Shown in pieces: positions 39,133 to 47,843 of a stretch of 64,000 nt of DNA. This DNA is from Stutzerimonas stutzeri (GTDB taxonomy: Bacteria; Pseudomonadota; Gammaproteobacteria; Pseudomonadales; Pseudomonadaceae). Every line of letters starts with the position of its first letter. The first letter of the stretch is position 1. The notes below the pieces were generated by a model. That model was given only the letters and a program-made list of their open reading frames with translations. It had not been told where the DNA came from and ran no database searches. The DNA is taken from positions 3,534,001-3,598,000 of the forward strand of contig NZ_CP073105.1 of the NCBI RefSeq assembly GCF_018138085.1, written 5' to 3'. The position numbers and the translations under genes were made by a program.

Positions 39133-40617
39133 TCACCCCGCGTGATATTCCGCGTCAGCCGCTTCGAAGCGCTGCTGAATGGACGCTGCAGGCTCCTTGC
39201 TCATGAGGCTGACAACGTAGATGGCAAGGCTGGCGAGGATGAAGCCGGGGATGATTTCGTACAGTCCGAGGCCAATGAATTCCTTCCAGACGACTACGGT
39301 AACGGCACCAACCAGCATGCCCGCCAGCGCACCGTTGCGGGTCATGCGCTTCCACACCAGCGAAATCAGCACCACCGGACCGAAGGCAGCGCCAAAGCCC
39401 GCCCAGGCGTAGGACACCAGGCCCAGCACCTTGCTGTCCGGATTCGAGGCGATACCGATGGCGATCAGCGCGATCAACAGCACCATGCCGCGGCCAACCC
39501 AGACCAGCTCGGTCTGCGATGCGCCCTTGCGCAGGAAGGCCTTGTAGAAGTCCTGTGTCAATGCGCTGGAGCTGACCAGCAGTTGCGCGCTGAGGGTACT
39601 CATGACCGCTGCCAGTACGCCGGAGAGGATGATCCCGGCAATCCATGGATTGAACATCAGCTTGACCAGCTCCATGAACACACGCTCACCGTTCTCGGTG
39701 ACCGCACCGGCCAGGGTCGGGTTGTCAGCGAAGTAGGCGATGCCGAGGAAGCCCACGGTGACGGCACCAGCCAGGGTCAGAATCATCCAGGCCATGCCGA
39801 TGCGGCGGGCGTTGGGAATGGTCTTCACCGAGTCGGCTGCCATGAAGCGCACCAGGATGTGCGGCTGGCCGAAATAGCCGAGCCCCCAGCCGAGCAGCGA
39901 GATGATGGCGATAAAGGACAGTCCCTTGAACATGTCGAAATTGGAGGGATCCTGAGCGGCGATGGTGTCCATCACGGTACCCATGTCACCCAGCGAGAGG
40001 ATGACGAATATCGGCGTGATCAGCAGCGCGAAGATCATCAGCGTCGCCTGCACGGTATCGGTCCAGCTCACGGCAAGAAAGCCACCGACGAACACGTAGA
40101 CGATGGTCGCCGCCGCGCCGACCCAAAGCGCCGTGTCGTACGACATACCGAAGGTCGATTCGAACAGGCGTGCTCCCGCGACGATGCCCGAAGCGCAATA
40201 GATGGTGAAGAACACCAGAATCACCAGCGCCGAGAAGATCCGCAGCAGGCGGCTGGTGTCCTCGAAACGATGAGAGAAATAGTCCGGCAGGGTCAGCGCG
40301 TTGTGGTTGTGCTCGGTGTGTACGCGCAGTCGCCCGGCGACGAAGATCCAGTTGAGCCAGGCACCAGCGATCAGGCCGATGGCGATCCAGCTTTCCGACA
40401 GACCGGCGACGAACACCGCCCCGGGCAGGCCCATCAGCAGCCAGCCGCTCATGTCCGACGCGCCGGCGGACAGCGCGGTAACGAAGCTGCCAAGGCTGCG
40501 GCCGCCGAGGATGTAGTCGTCGAAGTTCTTGGTAGCTCGGTAGGCGGTGAAACCGATGAGGATCATCGCCGCGATGTAGATCACGAACGTGATCAGGGTT
40601 GGGGTAGACACATTCAT
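39133..40617 (-). CDS. putP: Sodium/proline symporter, copy 1
   Basis: A 494-residue member of the solute:sodium symporter family with about 13 helices. Signatures include ILGGRSLGSFVTALSAGASDMSGWLLMGLPGA (Na+ site) and GLGYFGQPHILVRFMAADS. It imports proline with Na+. A close paralogue lies at 45670-47154 in the same orientation; the two differ mainly in scattered positions and at the C-terminus. This copy is separated from putA by the copper/hemoglobin unit, so it is probably expressed independently. Confidence 0.94.
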   Translation of the reverse strand: MNVSTPTLITFVIYIAAMILIGFTAYRATKNFDDYILGGRSLGSFVTALSAGASDMSGWLLMGLPGAVFVAGLSESWIAIGLIAGAWLNWIFVAGRLRVHTEHNHNALTLPDYFSHRFEDTSRLLRIFSALVILVFFTIYCASGIVAGARLFESTFGMSYDTALWVGAAATIVYVFVGGFLAVSWTDTVQATLMIFALLITPIFVILSLGDMGTVMDTIAAQDPSNFDMFKGLSFIAIISLLGWGLGYFGQPHILVRFMAADSVKTIPNARRIGMAWMILTLAGAVTVGFLGIAYFADNPTLAGAVTENGERVFMELVKLMFNPWIAGIILSGVLAAVMSTLSAQLLVSSSALTQDFYKAFLRKGASQTELVWVGRGMVLLIALIAIGIASNPDSKVLGLVSYAWAGFGAAFGPVVLISLVWKRMTRNGALAGMLVGAVTVVVWKEFIGLGLYEIIPGFILASLAIYVVSLMSKEPAASIQQRFEAADAEYHAG

Positions 40618-40813: not shown

Positions 40814-41233
40814 TTACTGATCGATCACCTGGCTGCGCATGGGTGCCAGGCGCGCCAACAAGCGGTTCTGCGTAGGGATCGGCACGCCCTCGGCGGTCAT
40901 GGCTGCCTGCAGGTCCTCTACCAGCGCGTTGAAGTCGCTGGGCGTCAGGGCCAGGCCTTTGTGGCTCTCCTGCATGCTGTCGCCGGTGTAGACGCAGGGG
41001 CCGCCCGCCTCGACGCAGAACTGCTCGATCAGCTTGTCGCGCAGGCGCTGGATATCGATGTCCTGAAAATGCTCGACGATACGAGGGTCCGCGGCGATGC
41101 GCAGCAGCATGCCCTCGACGATCCGGGTGACGCCGGGCTCGCCACCGAGCTGGCGATACAGGCTGTCTTCTTCAGGCACCTGCCCAGCGCAGGCACCGAG
41201 CAACAGACAGAACAACAGGGCGAACCGACGCAT
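40814..41233 (-). CDS. Lipoprotein with a group I truncated-hemoglobin domain
   Basis: A 139-residue protein with a lipoprotein signal (FALLFCLLLGACAG, Cys about 15). The mature part is a truncated globin: SLYRQLGGEPGVTRIVEGML (helices A/B), QFCVEAGGPCVYTGDSM (FG region) and the proximal His in MQESHKGLALTPSDFNALVEDL. Truncated globins bind O2, NO or CO; most are cytoplasmic, so export as a lipoprotein is unusual. The start overlaps the DUF3034 stop by one base. It is the last gene of a four-gene overlapping unit. Confidence 0.88.
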   Translation of the reverse strand: MRRFALLFCLLLGACAGQVPEEDSLYRQLGGEPGVTRIVEGMLLRIAADPRIVEHFQDIDIQRLRDKLIEQFCVEAGGPCVYTGDSMQESHKGLALTPSDFNALVEDLQAAMTAEGVPIPTQNRLLARLAPMRSQVIDQ

Positions 41234-42090
41234 CAGAAGCTCCCCTGCACGGACAGGTACAGGCCGTCCTGATTGTCCAGCGTGGCGATCTCGCCCAGCC
41301 GTGCATACGCCAGGACTACCGCCAGGCGCTTGTTGGGGAAGTAGCCCAGGAATAGATCGGCCCAGTCGCTTTCGCCCGCAAAGGAAAGGTTGTCCGGCTT
41401 TTCCCGGTACTCGACACCGAGCGCCCAGTTCGGGTTGAACAGCACGGCAGCCGAGCCTTCCTTGAGCAGGCTGCGGCTGTCGCGACGATCACCGCCGAAC
41501 CCAAGCAGCCCCAGCTCGTTGGCGCGGCTGTAGCGCACCCCGCCGTTGAGCAGAAGGTTGTAGCCAAAGGCGCCACCGAGAATCAGGCGGCTGGCGGTCA
41601 GATAGGCTTCGGTGTCTTCATCGCGCCGCGCGCCGATCAGTGACGGAATCAGAAAGTCCTTCTGACGTTTGTGCTGCACGCCCAGTGCCACCTGCGGCAG
41701 ACGGTCGTAGACAAGGTCGCCGAACAGTCGCAGTTTGGCGCCAAAGATGTCTTGGCTGAGGCTGTTCTCCGGCAGCGACAGATTCCGCGCCAAGGTGCCG
41801 AGATCGAAGCGCTGCCGCGCAAAGGACAACTCCAGGCGGTTATCGAAGGCAAACGCTACACCGGCGACGTCCAGTCGGTAGTCGCCGGTCTCAACGCGAG
41901 TGGCGAAGACGTCGCCGCCCCACTCGCCCCGCTCGCCATAACCCGCCAGCACGGCCCAGGGCGTGATACCGCCACCGGCCGCGCCTTCGATGCTGGTAGC
42001 GCCGCCGGTGGCCAATAAACGCCCCGCGTCTGCGCTGGCCAACATCGGTGCGCAGCAGGCGGCGAGCAGCAGGGTTCGCAAACGTCTCAT
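41233..42090 (-). CDS. DUF3034-family protein, probable outer-membrane barrel
   Basis: A 285-residue protein with a signal peptide (RRLRTLLLAACCAPMLASA). The mature part alternates polar and aromatic strands (YRLDVAGVAFAFDNRLELSFARQRFDL, GGAFGYNLLLNGGVRYSRANELG, ALGVEYREKPDNL, RLAVVLAYARLGEIATLDNQDGLYLSVQGSF) and ends in Phe, as outer-membrane barrels do. SIEGAAGGGITPWAVLAGYG is the DUF3034 signature. ATG 42090 overlaps the upstream EAL gene stop as ATGA. Function unknown. Confidence 0.8.
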   Translation of the reverse strand: MRRLRTLLLAACCAPMLASADAGRLLATGGATSIEGAAGGGITPWAVLAGYGERGEWGGDVFATRVETGDYRLDVAGVAFAFDNRLELSFARQRFDLGTLARNLSLPENSLSQDIFGAKLRLFGDLVYDRLPQVALGVQHKRQKDFLIPSLIGARRDEDTEAYLTASRLILGGAFGYNLLLNGGVRYSRANELGLLGFGGDRRDSRSLLKEGSAAVLFNPNWALGVEYREKPDNLSFAGESDWADLFLGYFPNKRLAVVLAYARLGEIATLDNQDGLYLSVQGSF

Positions 42091-44465
42091 GAGCGCTCCT
42101 TGAGCGGCCGCGCGGCCAGGTGGGGTTGTTGCCTGAGCCAGGCCTCGAAAGCATCGGCCGGAAGCGGCCGGCTGAAGAAATAACCTTGCAGGGTGTCGCA
42201 ACCCCAGGTGCGCAGCAGGTCACGCGTTTCGCCATGCTCGACGCCTTCAGCCACGACCTTGAGGCCCAGCGCATGGCTCATGTCGATGGTCGAACGGACG
42301 ATCACCGCATCGCCACAGGTGTCATCCAGCTCACGGATGAACGACTGGTCGATCTTCAGCTCCTGCACCGGCATGCGACGCAGCTGGGCGAGCGACGAGT
42401 AGCCGGTGCCGAAATCATCCACCGATAGCCGAATGCCCAGCGAGCGCAACCGATGCAGCATCGCCAGGGCACGCTCCGGATCGCGCATCATGGCGCTTTC
42501 GGTGATTTCGAAGACCAGCTGGTCGCCGGGAATCAGGTAGCGTTGCAGCAGCTCGCCAACCCGCTGCTCCAAGGTCAGGCTGGTCAGGTCTTCGGCGGAA
42601 ATGTTCAACGACACTTCCACGTACAGTCCACGCCCGTTCCAGACGTGCAGTTGCCGCAGCACCGCCTCGATGACCCAGGCGGTCAGCAGTTGAATGCTGC
42701 CCGTGCGCTCGGCCAAGGGTATGAACTCTCCCGGCGATACCATGCCGTAGACCGGGTGATGCCAGCGCAGCAGCGCCTCGGCCTGATAGACACGGCCTTG
42801 TTCCAGATCGACCTTCGGCTGGAAATGCAGGTGCAAGCCGCCGACCTGGGCCGCGCGACGCAGGTCCCGGATCAGGGTTATCTGTCGCTGATGGGCGTCG
42901 TCCCGGCCGTGCTGGTAAAGCTGCAAGCCGTCCGGCATCTGCGCGGCGTCCTGCATGGCGATCCGGGCACGCCGCAGCAATTCGTCGACGCTGCCGGCAT
43001 CGTCCGGGTAACCGGCTACCCCAATGTGCGCCTCGATACGCATCTCGAGTTCAGCAACGCGCACCGGCAAGGCCAGCGCCTGCTGCACGGCGACTGCAGC
43101 GCTGAAGGCGTTGTCGGCCGAGGTGTCGCTGACGATCAGCAGGAACTCGTCGCTAAGCATCCGCGCCAGGTGGTCACCGGGTTGCAAGCCTGCCTGTAAT
43201 CGCTGGGTCAGCTCGCGCAGGGCCTGATCGACCCCTTCGGCTCCGCCGCTGTCCTGCACGCCGGCCAGATTGCCGATGCCGATATGCAGCACTGCGGTGG
43301 TACGCCCGGCGCCGATGGCATTGGACAGCAGCTCGGCAACCAGCGAACGGTTCGGCAGGCCGGTCACGTCATCGTGGAGCATGTTGTGGGCGATCAGTTG
43401 TTCACGCTCGGCGATGCCCCGCTGCATCTGGTTGAGGGCGCTGGCCAGCGCGCCCAGTTCGTCGCCGCGATCCAGCTCGATCGGCGTCTGGTAATCACCG
43501 CGCCCGACCCGCTCGGCCGCCTCGGCCAGTGTGTTGACCGGCCCGGACAGGCTGCGCGCAAGGAGCAGCGCCCCGATCAGCGACGCGATCAGGCCGACGA
43601 AAGCGATCAGCAGGATTCGGGAATCGAGCTGGTGGAAGCCGGCCAGGGCATCGTCCAGTGAACTGTGAAGCAGCGCGACAACGCTGTAGTCGGCACCTTG
43701 CGAGAGCACGATGTCCTCGTTGAGGTAGCGCTCACCGCCAAGCATCAGCTCCTGGATACCCTTGGCATGATCGTGCCGACGCCAACCATCGATCAGCTCC
43801 TCGTGCCCCGCGGAGGCCAGCGTGGTGGCCAACCGGCCCCTGCGGTCCGCCTCCCGCGCCAGAAAGGACACCTCCAGGCCGGTCAACTGCTTGAGCTCGC
43901 TGGCCAGCGCCTCGTCCATCGCGAAGCCCATTACCACACGAGCGATGGGCAACGGCGCGCGGACCTCGGCCTCGACCATCAGGTGCGCCTGTTGATCCAG
44001 CGACACCACCAACATCGCCTGGCCCTGCTGGCGCGCCTCACGCAACTCGTCGGCATAGCGGAAGGTATCGCCCGGCCTTGCGCTGGACAGGCTCGACGCT
44101 AATACCTTGCCGTTCAGGTCCAGCAGCATCGCCTCGCTGGCGTTAATGCGCGCCGCCTGGTTTGCCATGGCTGACTGCAGGGTGAGCGTGTCCCCGCTGG
44201 AGACGGCATCCTTGAAGCCGAAGTCGGCGGCGAGCACCTGAATCCCATCGCGCAGTTGGCGGCCGCGCATGTCCAGCAATCGCTCGAACACCCGCAGGCC
44301 CGATTCCAGCCGCTCGGCAGCCTGGTTGCTTACAGCTGATTCGGTGACCAGGCGCACGGAAAAATACAAGGTGGCGATTACCACCAGCAGAAAGGCGGCG
44401 AGGATGCACGACAGGCGCGCGTGGAAGCTAAGGCTGCGCGTCACGGGTGGCTTTCCTGAAAGCAT
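42087..44465 (-). CDS. Membrane sensor with degenerate GGDEF and intact EAL domains
   Basis: A 792-residue protein: TM helix (about 18-38), a periplasmic sensor domain of some 230 residues, a second TM (about 272-298), HAMP, GGDEF (about 360-510) and EAL (about 525-775). The GGDEF signature has become LSDEF, so cyclase activity is unlikely. The EAL domain keeps AEALLRW, SLNIS, FEITES, VDDFGTGYSSL, LKIDQSFI, AEGVEH and LQGYFFSRP, so c-di-GMP hydrolysis is expected. Its start overlaps the copper-protein gene by 38 bp (or 17 bp if the GTG at 44444 is used). Confidence 0.9.
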   Translation of the reverse strand: MLSGKPPVTRSLSFHARLSCILAAFLLVVIATLYFSVRLVTESAVSNQAAERLESGLRVFERLLDMRGRQLRDGIQVLAADFGFKDAVSSGDTLTLQSAMANQAARINASEAMLLDLNGKVLASSLSSARPGDTFRYADELREARQQGQAMLVVSLDQQAHLMVEAEVRAPLPIARVVMGFAMDEALASELKQLTGLEVSFLAREADRRGRLATTLASAGHEELIDGWRRHDHAKGIQELMLGGERYLNEDIVLSQGADYSVVALLHSSLDDALAGFHQLDSRILLIAFVGLIASLIGALLLARSLSGPVNTLAEAAERVGRGDYQTPIELDRGDELGALASALNQMQRGIAEREQLIAHNMLHDDVTGLPNRSLVAELLSNAIGAGRTTAVLHIGIGNLAGVQDSGGAEGVDQALRELTQRLQAGLQPGDHLARMLSDEFLLIVSDTSADNAFSAAVAVQQALALPVRVAELEMRIEAHIGVAGYPDDAGSVDELLRRARIAMQDAAQMPDGLQLYQHGRDDAHQRQITLIRDLRRAAQVGGLHLHFQPKVDLEQGRVYQAEALLRWHHPVYGMVSPGEFIPLAERTGSIQLLTAWVIEAVLRQLHVWNGRGLYVEVSLNISAEDLTSLTLEQRVGELLQRYLIPGDQLVFEITESAMMRDPERALAMLHRLRSLGIRLSVDDFGTGYSSLAQLRRMPVQELKIDQSFIRELDDTCGDAVIVRSTIDMSHALGLKVVAEGVEHGETRDLLRTWGCDTLQGYFFSRPLPADAFEAWLRQQPHLAARPLKERS

Positions 44466-45099
44466 CGGCGAACGGTGTGGCCGTCGGAGGCGAGGGCTGC
44501 AGCGCGGCGGTCACCGCAACCGGCAGCTTCAGCTCGACCGGATCTTCACCCAACAACAGCGTGCCCGCATCCATTGGTTGCATATCGACCAGGGCCGGGT
44601 GCCAGAGCGTCGCCGGGTACTGTCCGGCTGGGGCATCCAGATTGATGAGACCTTGCGCGTCGCTGACGCCAAACCAGGGATCGTCGGAAACGTAGATATA
44701 ACCCAGCATCCAGTCATGGATGTTACAGCCCAGCACCACCAGCCCGGGTTGATCGAAGCCTACCGGCGCGCTCGGCGTACCCTCGTAGAGGCGCAGTTCG
44801 AAGCGTTTGGCCGGCGAGAATGAATAGACCTGGTGGCGGATATCATCGCTGTTGGGGAAGCTCACCGCCGTGCCAGTCGCCACAGCGAGTACTGCCGGCA
44901 CGAACTGCTTGTCGAGCTGATCCATGATCGCAACGGGCGCTGGCTTGCGTTGCGCCTGACCCGCCACGCTGAGCACGGCACCGGCAATCGGCCGTCCCTG
45001 CGCATCGGTCACTCGCACGCTGACAGGCTCTGCCCGTAATGGCACGACGAGTATGCACAGCAGTAGAAAACAGCTGGACCGCAAGACACCCTTGAACAT
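44428..45099 (-). CDS. Periplasmic cupredoxin-like protein (methylamine-utilisation-like)
   Basis: A 223-residue protein with a signal peptide (FLLLCILVVPLRA). The N-terminal half has a carboxypeptidase-regulatory-like strand set (VTDAQGRPIAGAVLSV). The middle is a cupredoxin: AVSFPNSDDIRHQVYSFSP gives one His ligand and LGCNIHDWMLGYI gives Cys-X2-His-X2-Met, the type-1 copper spacing of amicyanin. A C-terminal WHP-containing part follows. ATG 45099 (MFKGVLRSS) is preferred to 45153. It is the first gene of the unit; relatives are labelled 'methylamine utilization protein', although no methylamine genes are here. Confidence 0.85.
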   Translation of the reverse strand: MFKGVLRSSCFLLLCILVVPLRAEPVSVRVTDAQGRPIAGAVLSVAGQAQRKPAPVAIMDQLDKQFVPAVLAVATGTAVSFPNSDDIRHQVYSFSPAKRFELRLYEGTPSAPVGFDQPGLVVLGCNIHDWMLGYIYVSDDPWFGVSDAQGLINLDAPAGQYPATLWHPALVDMQPMDAGTLLLGEDPVELKLPVAVTAALQPSPPTATPFADAFRKATRDAQP

Positions 45100-45337
45100 A
45101 ACGCTGACTCCGCCATCGTGGCTTACCGTTGGACTACAGCCATTCCCTGGCAACCTCTTGGCCTCGTCAGGCTAGCCCATTGCCATCACCTGATCAGCAA
45201 AAATTTCGCTAGCGAGCCGGATTCCGTAGCGGATATCTGGCGTGTCGTCGCCACCGCCAAACAGATCGCCACCTCGACTGTCTCAATCATTACGGCTGCC
45301 CCTGTCGGCGGCCCCTCGCAGCCCAAGGAGATCCGCC

Positions 45338-45669: not shown

Positions 45670-47154
45670 TCAGCGGCCCTGGTACTCGTTCTCAGCGTCT
45701 TCGAAGCGCTTGATCATGCTCGGCGAGGCGCCCGCGCCGACCTTGCTGAAGACCACGATGGCGAGGCTGGCGAGGATGAAGCCCGGGATGATTTCGTACA
45801 GTCCCAGCCCAATGAACTCCTTCCAGACCACCACGGTGACCGCGCCGACGATCATGCCGGCCAGCGCGCCGTTACGGGTCATGTGCTTCCACAGCAGGGA
45901 GATCAGCACTACCGGACCGAAGGCAGCGCCGAAGCCCGCCCAGGCGTAGGACACCAGGCCCAGGACCTTGCTGTCCGGGTTCGAGGCGATACCCAGCGCG
46001 ATAAAGGCGATCAGCAGCACCATCGCGCGGCCGACCCAGACCAGCTCGGTCTGCGAGGCATTCTTGCGCAGCATGGCCTTGTAGAAGTCCTGCGTCAGGG
46101 CGCTGGAGCTGACCAGCAGTTGCGCGCTCAGGGTACTCATGACGGCCGCGAGCACACCGGAGAGGATCACGCCGGCAACCCAGGGGTTGAAGAGGATCTT
46201 CACCAGCTCCATGAACACCCGCTCACCGTTGGCCGTGACGGGACCAGCCTGGTCCGGATGCCCGGCAAAGTAGGCGATGCCGAAAAAGCCCACCGCGACG
46301 GCGCCGGCCAGGGTCAGGATCATCCACGCCATGCCGATGCGGCGGGCGTTGGGGATGGTCTTCACCGAGTCGGCGGCCATGAAGCGCACCAGGATATGCG
46401 GCTGGCCGAAATAGCCGAGACCCCAGGCCAGCAGCGAAATGATCGCGACGAAGGACAGGCCGTTGAACATGTCGAAAGCGGCCGGTTTCAGCGTCTCGAT
46501 GGTATCCATCGCCGCGCCCATGTCGCCCAGTGCCAGGATCACGAAGACCGGCGTGATCAGCAGCGCGAAGATCATCAGCGTCGCCTGCACGGTGTCGGTC
46601 CAGCTGACCGCGAGGAAGCCGCCGATAAATACATAGAGGATGGTCGCTGCCGCACCGATCCACAGCGCGACGTCGTAGGGCACGCCGAAGCTGCTCTCGA
46701 ACAGGCGCGCGCCGGCCACCACGCCCGAGGCGCAGTAGATGGTGAAGAACACCAGCACCACCAGCGCCGAGAAGATCCGCAGCAGGCGGCTCTCGTCTTC
46801 GAAGCGGTGCGAGAAATAGTCAGGCAGCGTGAGCGCGTTCTTGTTGCGCTCGGTGTGCACGCGCAGGCGTCCGGCGACGAACAGCCAGTTCAGCCAGGCG
46901 CCGGCGATGAGGCCGATGGCAATCCAGCTTTCCGACAACCCCGCCGCGTAGATGGCGCCCGGCAGGCCCATCAGCAACCAGCCACTCATGTCCGAAGCAC
47001 CGGCCGACAAGGCCGTGACGAAACTTCCGAGGCTGCGTCCCCCAAGGATGTAGTCGTCGAAGTTCTTGGTGGCACGGTAGGCGATAAAGCCGATCAACAG
47101 CATGGCGCCGATGTAGATCACGAAGGTGATCAGGGTGGGTGTACTGATGCTCAT
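45670..47154 (-). CDS. putP: Sodium/proline symporter, copy 2
   Basis: A 494-residue solute:sodium symporter almost colinear with the copy at 39133-40617; long blocks are identical (for example GGRSLGSFVTALSAGASDMS and FGQPHILVRFMAADSVKT). The C-terminus differs (VVFSKVGAGASPSMIKRFED). This copy follows putA on the same strand, separated by the REP array, and is the likely partner in a putA-putP unit. It would feed proline to PutA. The DNA of the two copies diverges at many third-codon positions, so the duplication is not recent. Confidence 0.95.
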   Translation of the reverse strand: MSISTPTLITFVIYIGAMLLIGFIAYRATKNFDDYILGGRSLGSFVTALSAGASDMSGWLLMGLPGAIYAAGLSESWIAIGLIAGAWLNWLFVAGRLRVHTERNKNALTLPDYFSHRFEDESRLLRIFSALVVLVFFTIYCASGVVAGARLFESSFGVPYDVALWIGAAATILYVFIGGFLAVSWTDTVQATLMIFALLITPVFVILALGDMGAAMDTIETLKPAAFDMFNGLSFVAIISLLAWGLGYFGQPHILVRFMAADSVKTIPNARRIGMAWMILTLAGAVAVGFFGIAYFAGHPDQAGPVTANGERVFMELVKILFNPWVAGVILSGVLAAVMSTLSAQLLVSSSALTQDFYKAMLRKNASQTELVWVGRAMVLLIAFIALGIASNPDSKVLGLVSYAWAGFGAAFGPVVLISLLWKHMTRNGALAGMIVGAVTVVVWKEFIGLGLYEIIPGFILASLAIVVFSKVGAGASPSMIKRFEDAENEYQGR

Positions 47155-47843
47155 TTTGTTCCCTCGTTAGTTGTTGTTGATGGGCGCGAGGGTTATCCCG
47201 ATCCCACCTGGCAGAGGGCGACGGCGGATCACGCCATCACCGGGACGGGTCCAACTGGACCCATCAGTGGCGGAAGAGCGATCCGCCGACTGTTCTGATT
47301 GTTGTTGTCATCCGTTCGCCTGAGCGTTCGGGGTGAAACCATGTACGGCAAATCAAACGCTTCGCCCCGAGGGCGGGCCTCCCACAAATAAAGCAGTGCA
47401 CACCGCTCCCAATGCGGGAGGCGCGACCCGCGGCGAATGGCGCCATCCCGGTGCCCGGAAAAGCTTCGCCCCGGGTCGGGCTTCCCACAAAAACCGCAGT
47501 GCAGGCCGCTCCCAATGTGGGAGCGCCCTTGCGGCGAATGGCGCCGGCCCGGTGCCCGAAAAGCTTCGCCCCGGGTCGGGCCTCCCACAAATACAGCAGT
47601 GCACACCGCCCCCAATGTAGGAGGCGCGCCCTCGCGGCGAATGGCGCCGTCCCGGTGCCCGAAAAGCTTCGCCCCGGGTCGGGCCTCCTACAAAAAACAG
47701 CAGTGCACGCCGTTCCCAATGTGGGAGGCGCGTCCTCGCGGCGAATGGCGCCATCCCGGTGCCCGGAAAAGCTTCGCCCCGGGTCGGGCCTCCCACAAAG
47801 AACAGCAGTGCGTGCCGTCAGGCCTGCCAGAGCCCCATCCCTG
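47155..47843 (-). other. 689-bp gap between putA and putP copy 2
   Basis: No gene is supported. The gap is mostly the five-unit repeat array at 47350-47830, described separately. The 195 bp nearest putP (47155-47349) are non-repetitive and could hold a putP promoter; GTAGTTGTTGTTGATGGGCG and CTGATTGTTGTTGTCATCCG are short TTG-rich runs of unknown role. Confidence 0.6.
47350..47830. repeat. Tandem array of five REP doublets, period about 104 bp
   Basis: TTCGCCCC starts near 47361, 47465, 47565, 47669 and 47773, giving steps of 100-104 bp. Each unit has CTTCGCCCCGGGTCGGGCCT, then CCTCCCACA, a short loop, and an inverted TGTGGGAGG followed by CGCGGCGAATGGCGCC. So each unit can form a hairpin of two REP-like arms with a GTGGGAGG core. 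The first unit differs most (CCCGAGGGCGGGCC). It is a different sequence from the 7.3-8.4 kb array but has the same design, and it lies inside the putA-putP operon gap. Confidence 0.9.

What the first reader, a model, noticed from the sequence alone, without database searches (positions are those of the whole stretch)
40814..45099. Overlapping four-gene unit: copper protein, c-di-GMP phosphodiesterase, DUF3034 barrel and lipidated hemoglobin
Four genes overlap by 1 to 38 bp and are clearly one operon. Their products would cover every envelope layer: a periplasmic protein with a complete His...Cys-X2-His-X2-Met copper set, an inner-membrane sensor with a periplasmic domain and an intact EAL phosphodiesterase, a probable outer-membrane DUF3034 protein and a lipoprotein truncated hemoglobin. 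Seen directly: the motifs and overlaps. Inference: the unit senses a diatomic gas or redox state in the envelope (heme and/or copper) and lowers c-di-GMP. I know of no described system with this gene set.
Basis: partly seen in the sequence, partly recalled or inferred. Interest (0 to 1): 0.8.

Follow-up and report, generated by a model that had tools for sequence, protein, structure and literature searches.

The report
Copper-protein c-di-GMP envelope signalling operon
Four overlapping bacterial genes (a copper protein, a membrane enzyme that probably destroys the messenger c-di-GMP, an outer-membrane barrel and an exported haemoglobin) form a conserved, apparently undescribed unit that may report the chemistry of the cell envelope to the cell interior.

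Summary
In detail: four minus-strand genes at 40814-45099 overlap by 38, 4 and 1 bp. Of 398 sampled Pseudomonadota genomes, 39 carry DUF3034; all 39 have the globin beside it, and 30 keep all four genes in one locus, in at least three gene orders. Copper ligands are invariant in 54 of 54 cupredoxins, the proximal haem histidine in 39 of 39 globins, and nine EAL active-site positions in 40 of 40 sensors.

The larger finding: the unit is two modules, DUF3034+globin and cupredoxin+Cache sensor. The cupredoxin travels with related Cache-HAMP sensors whose output varies: EAL phosphodiesterase, adenylate/guanylate cyclase, histidine kinase or Ser/Thr kinase, often beside an outer-membrane barrel gene. 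Sensor and cupredoxin co-occur in 50 genomes, against 1 with only the sensor and 3 with only the cupredoxin (the profile was built from linked sensors). This suggests the cupredoxin is the sensor's periplasmic input partner.

The signal (redox state, gas, copper, haem) is not shown. The globin lacks the usual O2-stabilising Tyr/Gln, which argues against plain O2 storage. No description was found in the open-access papers searched.

The parts
44428..45099 (-). cup: exported cupredoxin (223 aa; relatives are annotated 'methylamine utilization protein')
44683..44940 (-). cupredoxin domain, residues 54-139; type-1 copper ligands H89 (44833-44835), C125 (44725-44727), H128 (44716-44718), M131 (44707-44709)
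42087..44465 (-). membrane protein, predicted c-di-GMP phosphodiesterase: TM, periplasmic dCache_3, TM, HAMP, degenerate GGDEF, EAL
43725..44327 (-). periplasmic dCache_3 sensor domain, residues 47-247
   Evidence: related domain in sensors with other outputs
43416..43565 (-). HAMP domain, residues 301-350
42939..43379 (-). degenerate GGDEF domain (LSDEF), residues 363-509
42165..42869 (-). EAL domain, residues 533-767, nine active-site positions intact
41233..42090 (-). DUF3034 protein, predicted 12-strand outer-membrane beta-barrel (285 aa)
   Evidence: PF11231, 371 bits; AlphaFold2 pLDDT 84.3, 12 strands
41941..42021 (-). conserved N-terminal Gly-rich segment of DUF3034 (residues 24-50), low-confidence in the model, possibly a barrel plug
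40814..41233 (-). group I truncated globin with lipoprotein signal (lipobox C15 at 41189-41191)
40826..41164 (-). globin domain, residues 24-136; proximal H91 (40961-40963), conserved C73 (41015-41017) and C80 (40994-40996)
45169..45196 (-). promoter-like element TGA[AT]C-N13..19-[CT]TANNCT upstream of cup
   Evidence: 35 of 79 loci (window plus 78) against a resampled mean of 0.12, maximum 2; motif chosen after viewing

Best explanation
The four genes encode an envelope-spanning sensory unit with a c-di-GMP output. SHOWN by comparison: two conserved gene pairs (DUF3034+globin; cupredoxin+Cache-EAL) that are kept together in several gene orders, with intact copper, haem and phosphodiesterase sites. 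INFERRED: (1) the type-1 copper protein is the dedicated periplasmic input partner of the Cache domain, docking in one redox or metal state as solute-binding proteins do on LuxQ-type sensors; (2) the DUF3034 barrel and the OM-anchored globin supply or condition that state, most likely by reacting with a small redox-active ligand (NO or another gas, or an envelope oxidant), with electrons passing between haem and copper; (3) docking switches the EAL phosphodiesterase and lowers c-di-GMP, favouring a change from attached to motile life. Step 1 is the best supported; steps 2 and 3 are inference.
For: Adjacency kept through several gene orders: cup-EAL-DUF3034-glb; DUF3034-glb-cup-EAL (L123; Caballeronia plasmid L184); divergent pairs (six loci such as L142; Novosphingobium plasmid L185); glb-cup-EAL with divergent DUF3034 (L196). 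Of 84 cupredoxin loci at 100 bits or more, 72 hold a Cache-type sensor on the locus, 63 of them less than 100 bp downstream on the same strand. Output class varies: EAL, PF00211 cyclase (6 loci), histidine kinase (3), Ser/Thr kinase (5 scanned, plus L210 by resemblance); 7 output changes by parsimony on the cupredoxin tree as drawn. Profile: sensor and cupredoxin both 50, sensor only 1, cupredoxin only 3, neither 344 of 398 genomes. Mirror-tree: cupredoxin follows the periplasmic domain (r 0.59, partial 0.51) more than the EAL domain of the same protein (0.41, 0.23) in 55 loci. Invariant copper, haem and active-site residues.
Against: No direct evidence of binding, redox chemistry or signalling. 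In the 36 loci with all five domains the mirror-tree contrast is small (0.35 against 0.29). Of 84 cupredoxin loci, 12 have no sensor on the locus, five of them with a barrel410 gene instead, and all 12 further loci under 100 bits lack one. Of 58 sensor places, 12 are not within 500 bp of a cupredoxin, some with GGDEF only. Only one Asp is invariant in the periplasmic domain across output classes; a His at residue 103 is in 26 of 40 EAL-type sensors but is Gln in the window, so there is no obvious docking or metal site. The kinase sensors are distant: Ser/Thr kinases 31-63 bits, L181 and L182 45 and 32 bits, and Pfam's Cache models miss or stay under cut-off in L181, L182, L193, L199, L208 and L209. 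The sensor profile was built from cupredoxin-linked sensors, and related genomes are not independent. Well-supported tree branches force fewer output changes (3 for EAL, 2 each for the others). L204 has DUF3034 without a detectable globin; G078 has DUF3034+globin and no cupredoxin.
Confidence: 0.5

Rival explanations
1. Copper reading: the signal is copper itself. The barrel admits copper, the cupredoxin binds it, and the loaded protein docks on the Cache domain; the globin is a haem-based helper or protectant.
Against: Type-1 sites normally transfer electrons (recalled). At the DUF3034 loci no gene beyond the four families is conserved, so no copper-efflux neighbour recurs. No CueR-type box upstream of cup in 79 loci. 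The reading gives the globin no natural role.
Confidence: 0.2
2. Enzymatic reading: cupredoxin, globin and barrel form a periplasmic redox or NO-detoxifying (or haem-handling) pathway, and the phosphodiesterase is only co-regulated with it, without physical coupling.
For: DUF3034+globin is a module of its own (39 of 39 genomes; five loci with only this pair). MauG-type peroxidase genes lie between cupredoxin and sensor in L181 and L182. L159 and L163 sit beside genes resembling a TonB receptor and a hydroxylase (own reading, not scanned).
Against: The cupredoxin follows the periplasmic half of the sensor through four classes of cytoplasmic output, which co-regulation alone does not predict. 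In 4 of the 5 genomes whose DUF3034+globin pair stands alone, a cupredoxin+EAL pair lies elsewhere.
Confidence: 0.22
3. Haem or iron reading: DUF3034 and the lipoprotein globin scavenge haem at the outer membrane, and the unit reports haem availability.
For: Invariant proximal His with an apolar distal pocket suits holding haem; the OM location is inferred from lipobox and barrel.
Against: No further conserved gene such as a TonB receptor or haem transporter at the DUF3034 loci, no Fur box in 79 leaders; DUF3034 is modelled as a small barrel, not a TonB receptor. It does not explain the copper protein.
Confidence: 0.08

Closest known systems
Solute-binding-protein-coupled sensors (LuxP-LuxQ; NspS-MbaA; SBP-activated histidine kinases)
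   Same: A periplasmic partner encoded beside a transmembrane sensor whose periplasmic domain it engages. The abstract of PMC11113362 says many such kinases are encoded adjacent to their sbp gene; LuxPQ and NspS-MbaA were seen there only as reference titles, the rest is recalled.
   Different: The partner here is a type-1 copper protein, not a solute-binding protein; one family serves four output classes; an OM barrel gene is often a third partner.
YfiB-YfiR-YfiN / HmsC-HmsD
   Same: c-di-GMP enzyme of the inner membrane with a periplasmic redox-responsive partner. HmsC/HmsD are listed as redox in review PMC8846402 (passages); YfiBNR is recalled.
   Different: Different protein families; output here is an EAL domain, not a cyclase; copper and haem instead of disulfides.
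Haem-based c-di-GMP sensors (DosP/PdeO, globin-coupled sensors, H-NOX, NosP)
   Same: Haem protein linked to c-di-GMP turnover (PMC8846402, passages).
   Different: Those haem domains are cytoplasmic (recalled) and mostly fused or directly partnered; this globin is exported, separate and of the truncated group I type.
Amicyanin, pseudoazurin and NirK-fused cupredoxin domains
   Same: Cupredoxin fold; the Cys-X2-His-X2-Met loop is like amicyanin's (recalled).
   Different: Here the cupredoxin may be inserted into a CarboxypepD_reg-like domain (24.3 bits when the two flanks are joined, against 17.6 for the N-terminal flank; cut-off 32.3) and its gene sits beside sensors.
Group I truncated haemoglobin HbN
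   Same: Nearest solved relatives, proximal His F8, Phe CD1.
   Different: Exported; two conserved Cys; no Tyr B10 (0 of 39) and no Gln E11 (0 of 39).

Membership tests
EAL-type c-di-GMP phosphodiesterase | EAL domain with metal- and substrate-binding residues | tested here: met
   PF00563 250 bits; nine positions invariant in 40 of 40; their roles are recalled
EAL-type c-di-GMP phosphodiesterase | hydrolyses c-di-GMP | not testable with these tools
   needs an enzyme assay
Diguanylate cyclase | intact GG(D/E)EF | tested here: not met
   LSDEF in the window; GGDEF in 12 of 40 homologues
dCache_3 sensor | PF14827 between two TM segments, followed by HAMP | tested here: met
   60 bits against cut-off 25.7; hydrophobic stretches at about residues 11-42 and 279-308
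Type-1 copper cupredoxin | cupredoxin fold with His, Cys, His, Met ligands | tested here: met
Amicyanin (methylamine utilisation) | co-encoded with methylamine dehydrogenase | tested here: inconclusive
   PF02975 found nothing in the own genome, but the control genomes were silent too
Group I truncated haemoglobin | 2/2 globin family with proximal His F8 and Phe CD1 | tested here: met
   39 of 39; best solved matches are HbN
Group I truncated haemoglobin | distal Tyr B10 / Gln E11 that stabilise O2 (recalled for HbN) | tested here: not met
   B10 Leu/Ile/Val/Met in 38 and Asn in 1 of 39; E11 Leu/Phe in 39 of 39
DUF3034 | PF11231 over its cut-off | tested here: met
   371 bits against cut-off 25
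Outer-membrane beta-barrel | even-numbered antiparallel barrel with C-terminal aromatic residue | tested here: met
YfiBNR / HmsCDE | periplasmic YfiR/HmsC-type partner and a diguanylate cyclase | tested here: not met
   Pfam finds none of these families in the four proteins; the partner is a cupredoxin and GGDEF is degenerate
SBP-coupled sensor (LuxPQ, NspS-MbaA) | periplasmic partner is a solute-binding protein | tested here: not met
   no SBP family match; cupredoxin fold
SBP-coupled sensor (LuxPQ, NspS-MbaA) | partner physically docks on the periplasmic domain | not testable with these tools
   only indirect support from co-occurrence and mirror-tree

The most novel reading that the evidence does not exclude
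A general, undescribed signalling principle: a type-1 copper protein is the periplasmic receptor or adaptor for a family of Cache-HAMP transmembrane transducers, and evolution has plugged in at least four outputs behind it (c-di-GMP phosphodiesterase, adenylate/guanylate cyclase, histidine kinase, Ser/Thr kinase) and several outer-membrane barrels in front of it. The redox state of one copper atom would be read across the inner membrane. In the version found here, an exported haemoglobin and a DUF3034 barrel feed that copper centre.
Probability: 0.42. Interest if true: 0.9.

Novelty: new variant of a known kind. Interest (0 to 1): 0.76.

Why it matters
Many periplasmic Cache sensors of c-di-GMP enzymes have no known input (recalled). 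A cupredoxin that follows the sensor domain through changes of output gives a concrete, testable candidate receptor, and would make copper-redox signalling a class of bacterial transmembrane signalling. It would also give DUF3034, an exported haemoglobin family and a probably misnamed 'methylamine utilization protein' family a common function.

Tried and rejected
Chance or purely vertical linkage: rejected, because several gene orders keep the genes together and separated pairs mostly still co-occur. Methylamine metabolism: the test was inconclusive. Mobile cargo: DUF3034 is on 13 of 72,556 plasmid records, all Caballeronia, Paraburkholderia or Novosphingobium; ten of the 13 are typed non-mobilizable, so mobility is not the theme. 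RNA leader: one chance-level Rfam match only (11.5 bits against a cut-off of 50). ANR/FNR, Fur, CueR, OxyR-like and RpoN boxes upstream of cup: no clear excess over one shuffle per leader in 79 loci. Fusions of globin and DUF3034: by my reading the long ORFs are overlapping frames in GC-rich DNA. Conserved fifth gene at the DUF3034 loci: none; the next cluster occurs in 4 of 40 loci against 27-32 for the four families, whose counts are lowered by a crude gene picker. Literature (open-access library only): DUF3034 occurs in 2 papers; one seen as a listing, one read in passage, where a retron figure legend otherwise about DUF3037 names it. The searches gave listings without a description of the unit; (purple cupredoxin) and one search were listings too. 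Passages read that do not concern it: PMC3770913, PMC11976967, PMC4320434.

Full report
WHAT IS THERE. The reading of the sequence is correct. Four minus-strand genes overlap by 38, 4 and 1 bp: a cupredoxin with signal peptide (44428-45099), a membrane protein with dCache_3, HAMP, GGDEF and EAL domains (42087-44465), a DUF3034 protein (41233-42090) and a globin with a lipobox (40814-41233). The 80 DUF3034 relatives kept from named records are Pseudomonas or Stutzerimonas, or MAGs called Gammaproteobacteria. Two putP-type genes, 86% identical in protein, flank the unit.

CONSERVATION OF THE UNIT. Of those 80 loci (80 kept of 192 found), 78 carry all four genes in the same order; L018 is cut by its contig end, and L035 shows no cupredoxin or EAL gene in the 2.2 kb its contig holds upstream. 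In 398 genomes spread over the phylum, 39 (27 of 212 genera) carry DUF3034 and none of 14 control genomes does. I fetched the loci of the other 38 genomes and one extra fragmentary copy; the window is the 39th. By my count, 30 of 39 have all four genes in one locus: 23 collinear including the window, 1 in the order DUF3034-globin-cupredoxin-EAL (L123), and 6 as divergent pairs (L125, L131, L142, L144, L145, L147). The other nine: L132 lacks cup on the locus (it lies elsewhere in that genome, L150); L117, L135 and L140 lack the EAL gene (L117 has a different EAL protein 1.7 kb away on the other strand); L115, L141, L143, L146 and L148 have DUF3034 and globin only, L148 with a truncated DUF3034. 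No other gene recurs: the four families fall in 27-32 of 40 neighbourhoods, the next cluster in 4. Named plasmids show two of the other arrangements: Caballeronia sp. SBC2 (DUF3034-globin-cupredoxin-EAL) and Novosphingobium sp. EMRT-2 (divergent). L196 shows a further one.

TWO MODULES. The globin subfamily scores 143 bits or more at 42 places, then drops to 93. All 39 DUF3034 genomes have it, against 2 of 359 without DUF3034. In the second sample L204 has DUF3034 but no detectable globin. The cupredoxin also occurs without DUF3034, often directly followed by its own EAL sensor. Of the five genomes where DUF3034+globin stands alone, four have a cupredoxin+EAL pair elsewhere (G213, G389, G225, G261); the fifth, G078, has no cupredoxin match.

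THE CUPREDOXIN-SENSOR PARTNERSHIP. I fetched all 26 cupredoxin matches of 100 bits or more that lie away from DUF3034, one weaker one, and, from a second and partly overlapping sample (369 genomes of the class), the 33 not yet held of 91 bits or more. Neighbours showed that the gene beside the cupredoxin often encodes a sensor with a related periplasmic domain but varying output: EAL; adenylate/guanylate cyclase PF00211 (L157, L160, L188, L197, L199, L202); histidine kinase (L193; L181 and L182, where a MauG-type peroxidase gene intervenes); Ser/Thr kinase PF00069 (L172, L204, L207, L208, L209 by Pfam; L210 by resemblance). Of 96 cupredoxin loci above 70 bits, 84 reach 100 bits; 72 of these 84 hold a sensor, 63 within 100 bp downstream on the same strand. 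The 12 without are L117, L135, L140, L150, L155, L156, L159, L163, L164, L165, L180 (contig end) and L205; all 12 loci under 100 bits lack one too. The sensors were found with a profile of the EAL-type periplasmic domain; the kinase versions are distant (31-63 bits; L193 151), and Pfam's Cache models miss or stay under cut-off in L181, L182, L193, L199, L208 and L209. Barrel genes recur: DUF3034 in 42 and a roughly 410-residue barrel-like family in 17 of 85 tree rows. That second family is called a barrel only from weak, sub-threshold porin matches.

RECIPROCAL TEST. A profile of the periplasmic domain (24 cupredoxin-linked sensors) was run on the 398 genomes: 58 places in 51 genomes; 46 of 58 lie within 500 bp of a cupredoxin. 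At genome level: both 50, sensor only 1, cupredoxin (100 bits or more) only 3, neither 344 (Fisher p about 9e-59). Cautions: related genomes are not independent; the profile was trained on linked sensors; the search scored at most six candidates per genome. Sensors without a neighbouring cupredoxin exist, three of them with GGDEF and no EAL detected. On the cupredoxin tree the output changes 7 times by parsimony among labelled rows (L195 was labelled EAL by assumption, its reading frames being broken); 37 of 82 inner branches have support under 80, and well-supported branches force fewer changes. The mirror-tree comparison favours cupredoxin-periplasmic domain over cupredoxin-EAL in 55 loci (partial 0.51 against 0.23), weakly in the 36 loci with all five domains (0.35 against 0.29).

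REGULATION. Upstream of cup, 35 of 79 loci (the window and 78) carry TGA[AT]C-N13..19-[CT]TANNCT against a resampled mean of 0.12 and maximum of 2. The motif was framed after looking, and the loci are related. The -10 part resembles RpoS-type promoters (recalled).

MECHANISM AND RIVALS. The constant pair is cupredoxin and periplasmic sensor domain; what varies is the cytoplasmic output and the outer-membrane partner. The simplest reading is that the cupredoxin is the input component. Precedent for partner-assisted sensors encoded beside their partner exists for solute-binding proteins (PMC11113362, abstract and passages). A 2022 census of c-di-GMP stimuli (PMC8846402, passages only) contains no occurrence of 'copper' in its main text, and the haem sensors in the passages seen are other kinds. 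What the copper centre reports is open: redox state or a gas with help from the globin (preferred), copper itself, or haem.

VERDICT. Observation confirmed; interpretation partly supported; the unit is real, conserved and, in the library searched, undescribed. It works like partner-assisted envelope sensors but meets the defining features of none of the described systems compared here.

Noticed in passing
window 39133-40617 and 45670-47154: Two putP-type transporter genes, 86% identical in protein and on the same strand, flank the four-gene unit; the related locus L119 has genes of the same cluster on both sides.
   Followed up: partly
window 47355-47811: Tandem array of 4.4 copies of a 103-bp unit beside the second putP.
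   Followed up: no
L148:9676-10658 and L149:9676-10161: Decaying copies: a 5'-truncated DUF3034 with an intact globin (G261), and a fragmented second DUF3034 copy near a stop-interrupted globin match (G078).
   Followed up: no
L111:4765-7200, L112:13451-15847, L118:13553-15646: A second EAL gene lies in tandem on the other side of the cupredoxin gene.
   Followed up: no
L159:3883-7621 and L163:3497-7380: The cupredoxin gene follows genes that look like a TonB-dependent receptor and a PKHD-type hydroxylase, an apparent iron-uptake setting (own reading of the sequences, not scanned).
   Followed up: no
L181:5681-6694 and L182:7401-7739: A MauG/cytochrome c peroxidase-type gene (in L182 a 112-residue frame) sits between cupredoxin and hybrid histidine kinase.
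   Followed up: partly
L186:3991-4947: On a Comamonas aquatica plasmid a DUF4394 protein gene precedes the cupredoxin-EAL pair.
   Followed up: no
L197:6970-8274 and L202:7855-9156: A further membrane protein of about 434 residues (HAMP found in L197) follows the cupredoxin-linked cyclase.
   Followed up: no
L226:5000-6481, L227:4774-6834, L228:5050-7173: Sensors with the related periplasmic domain and GGDEF but no EAL detected, without a cupredoxin nearby.
   Followed up: no
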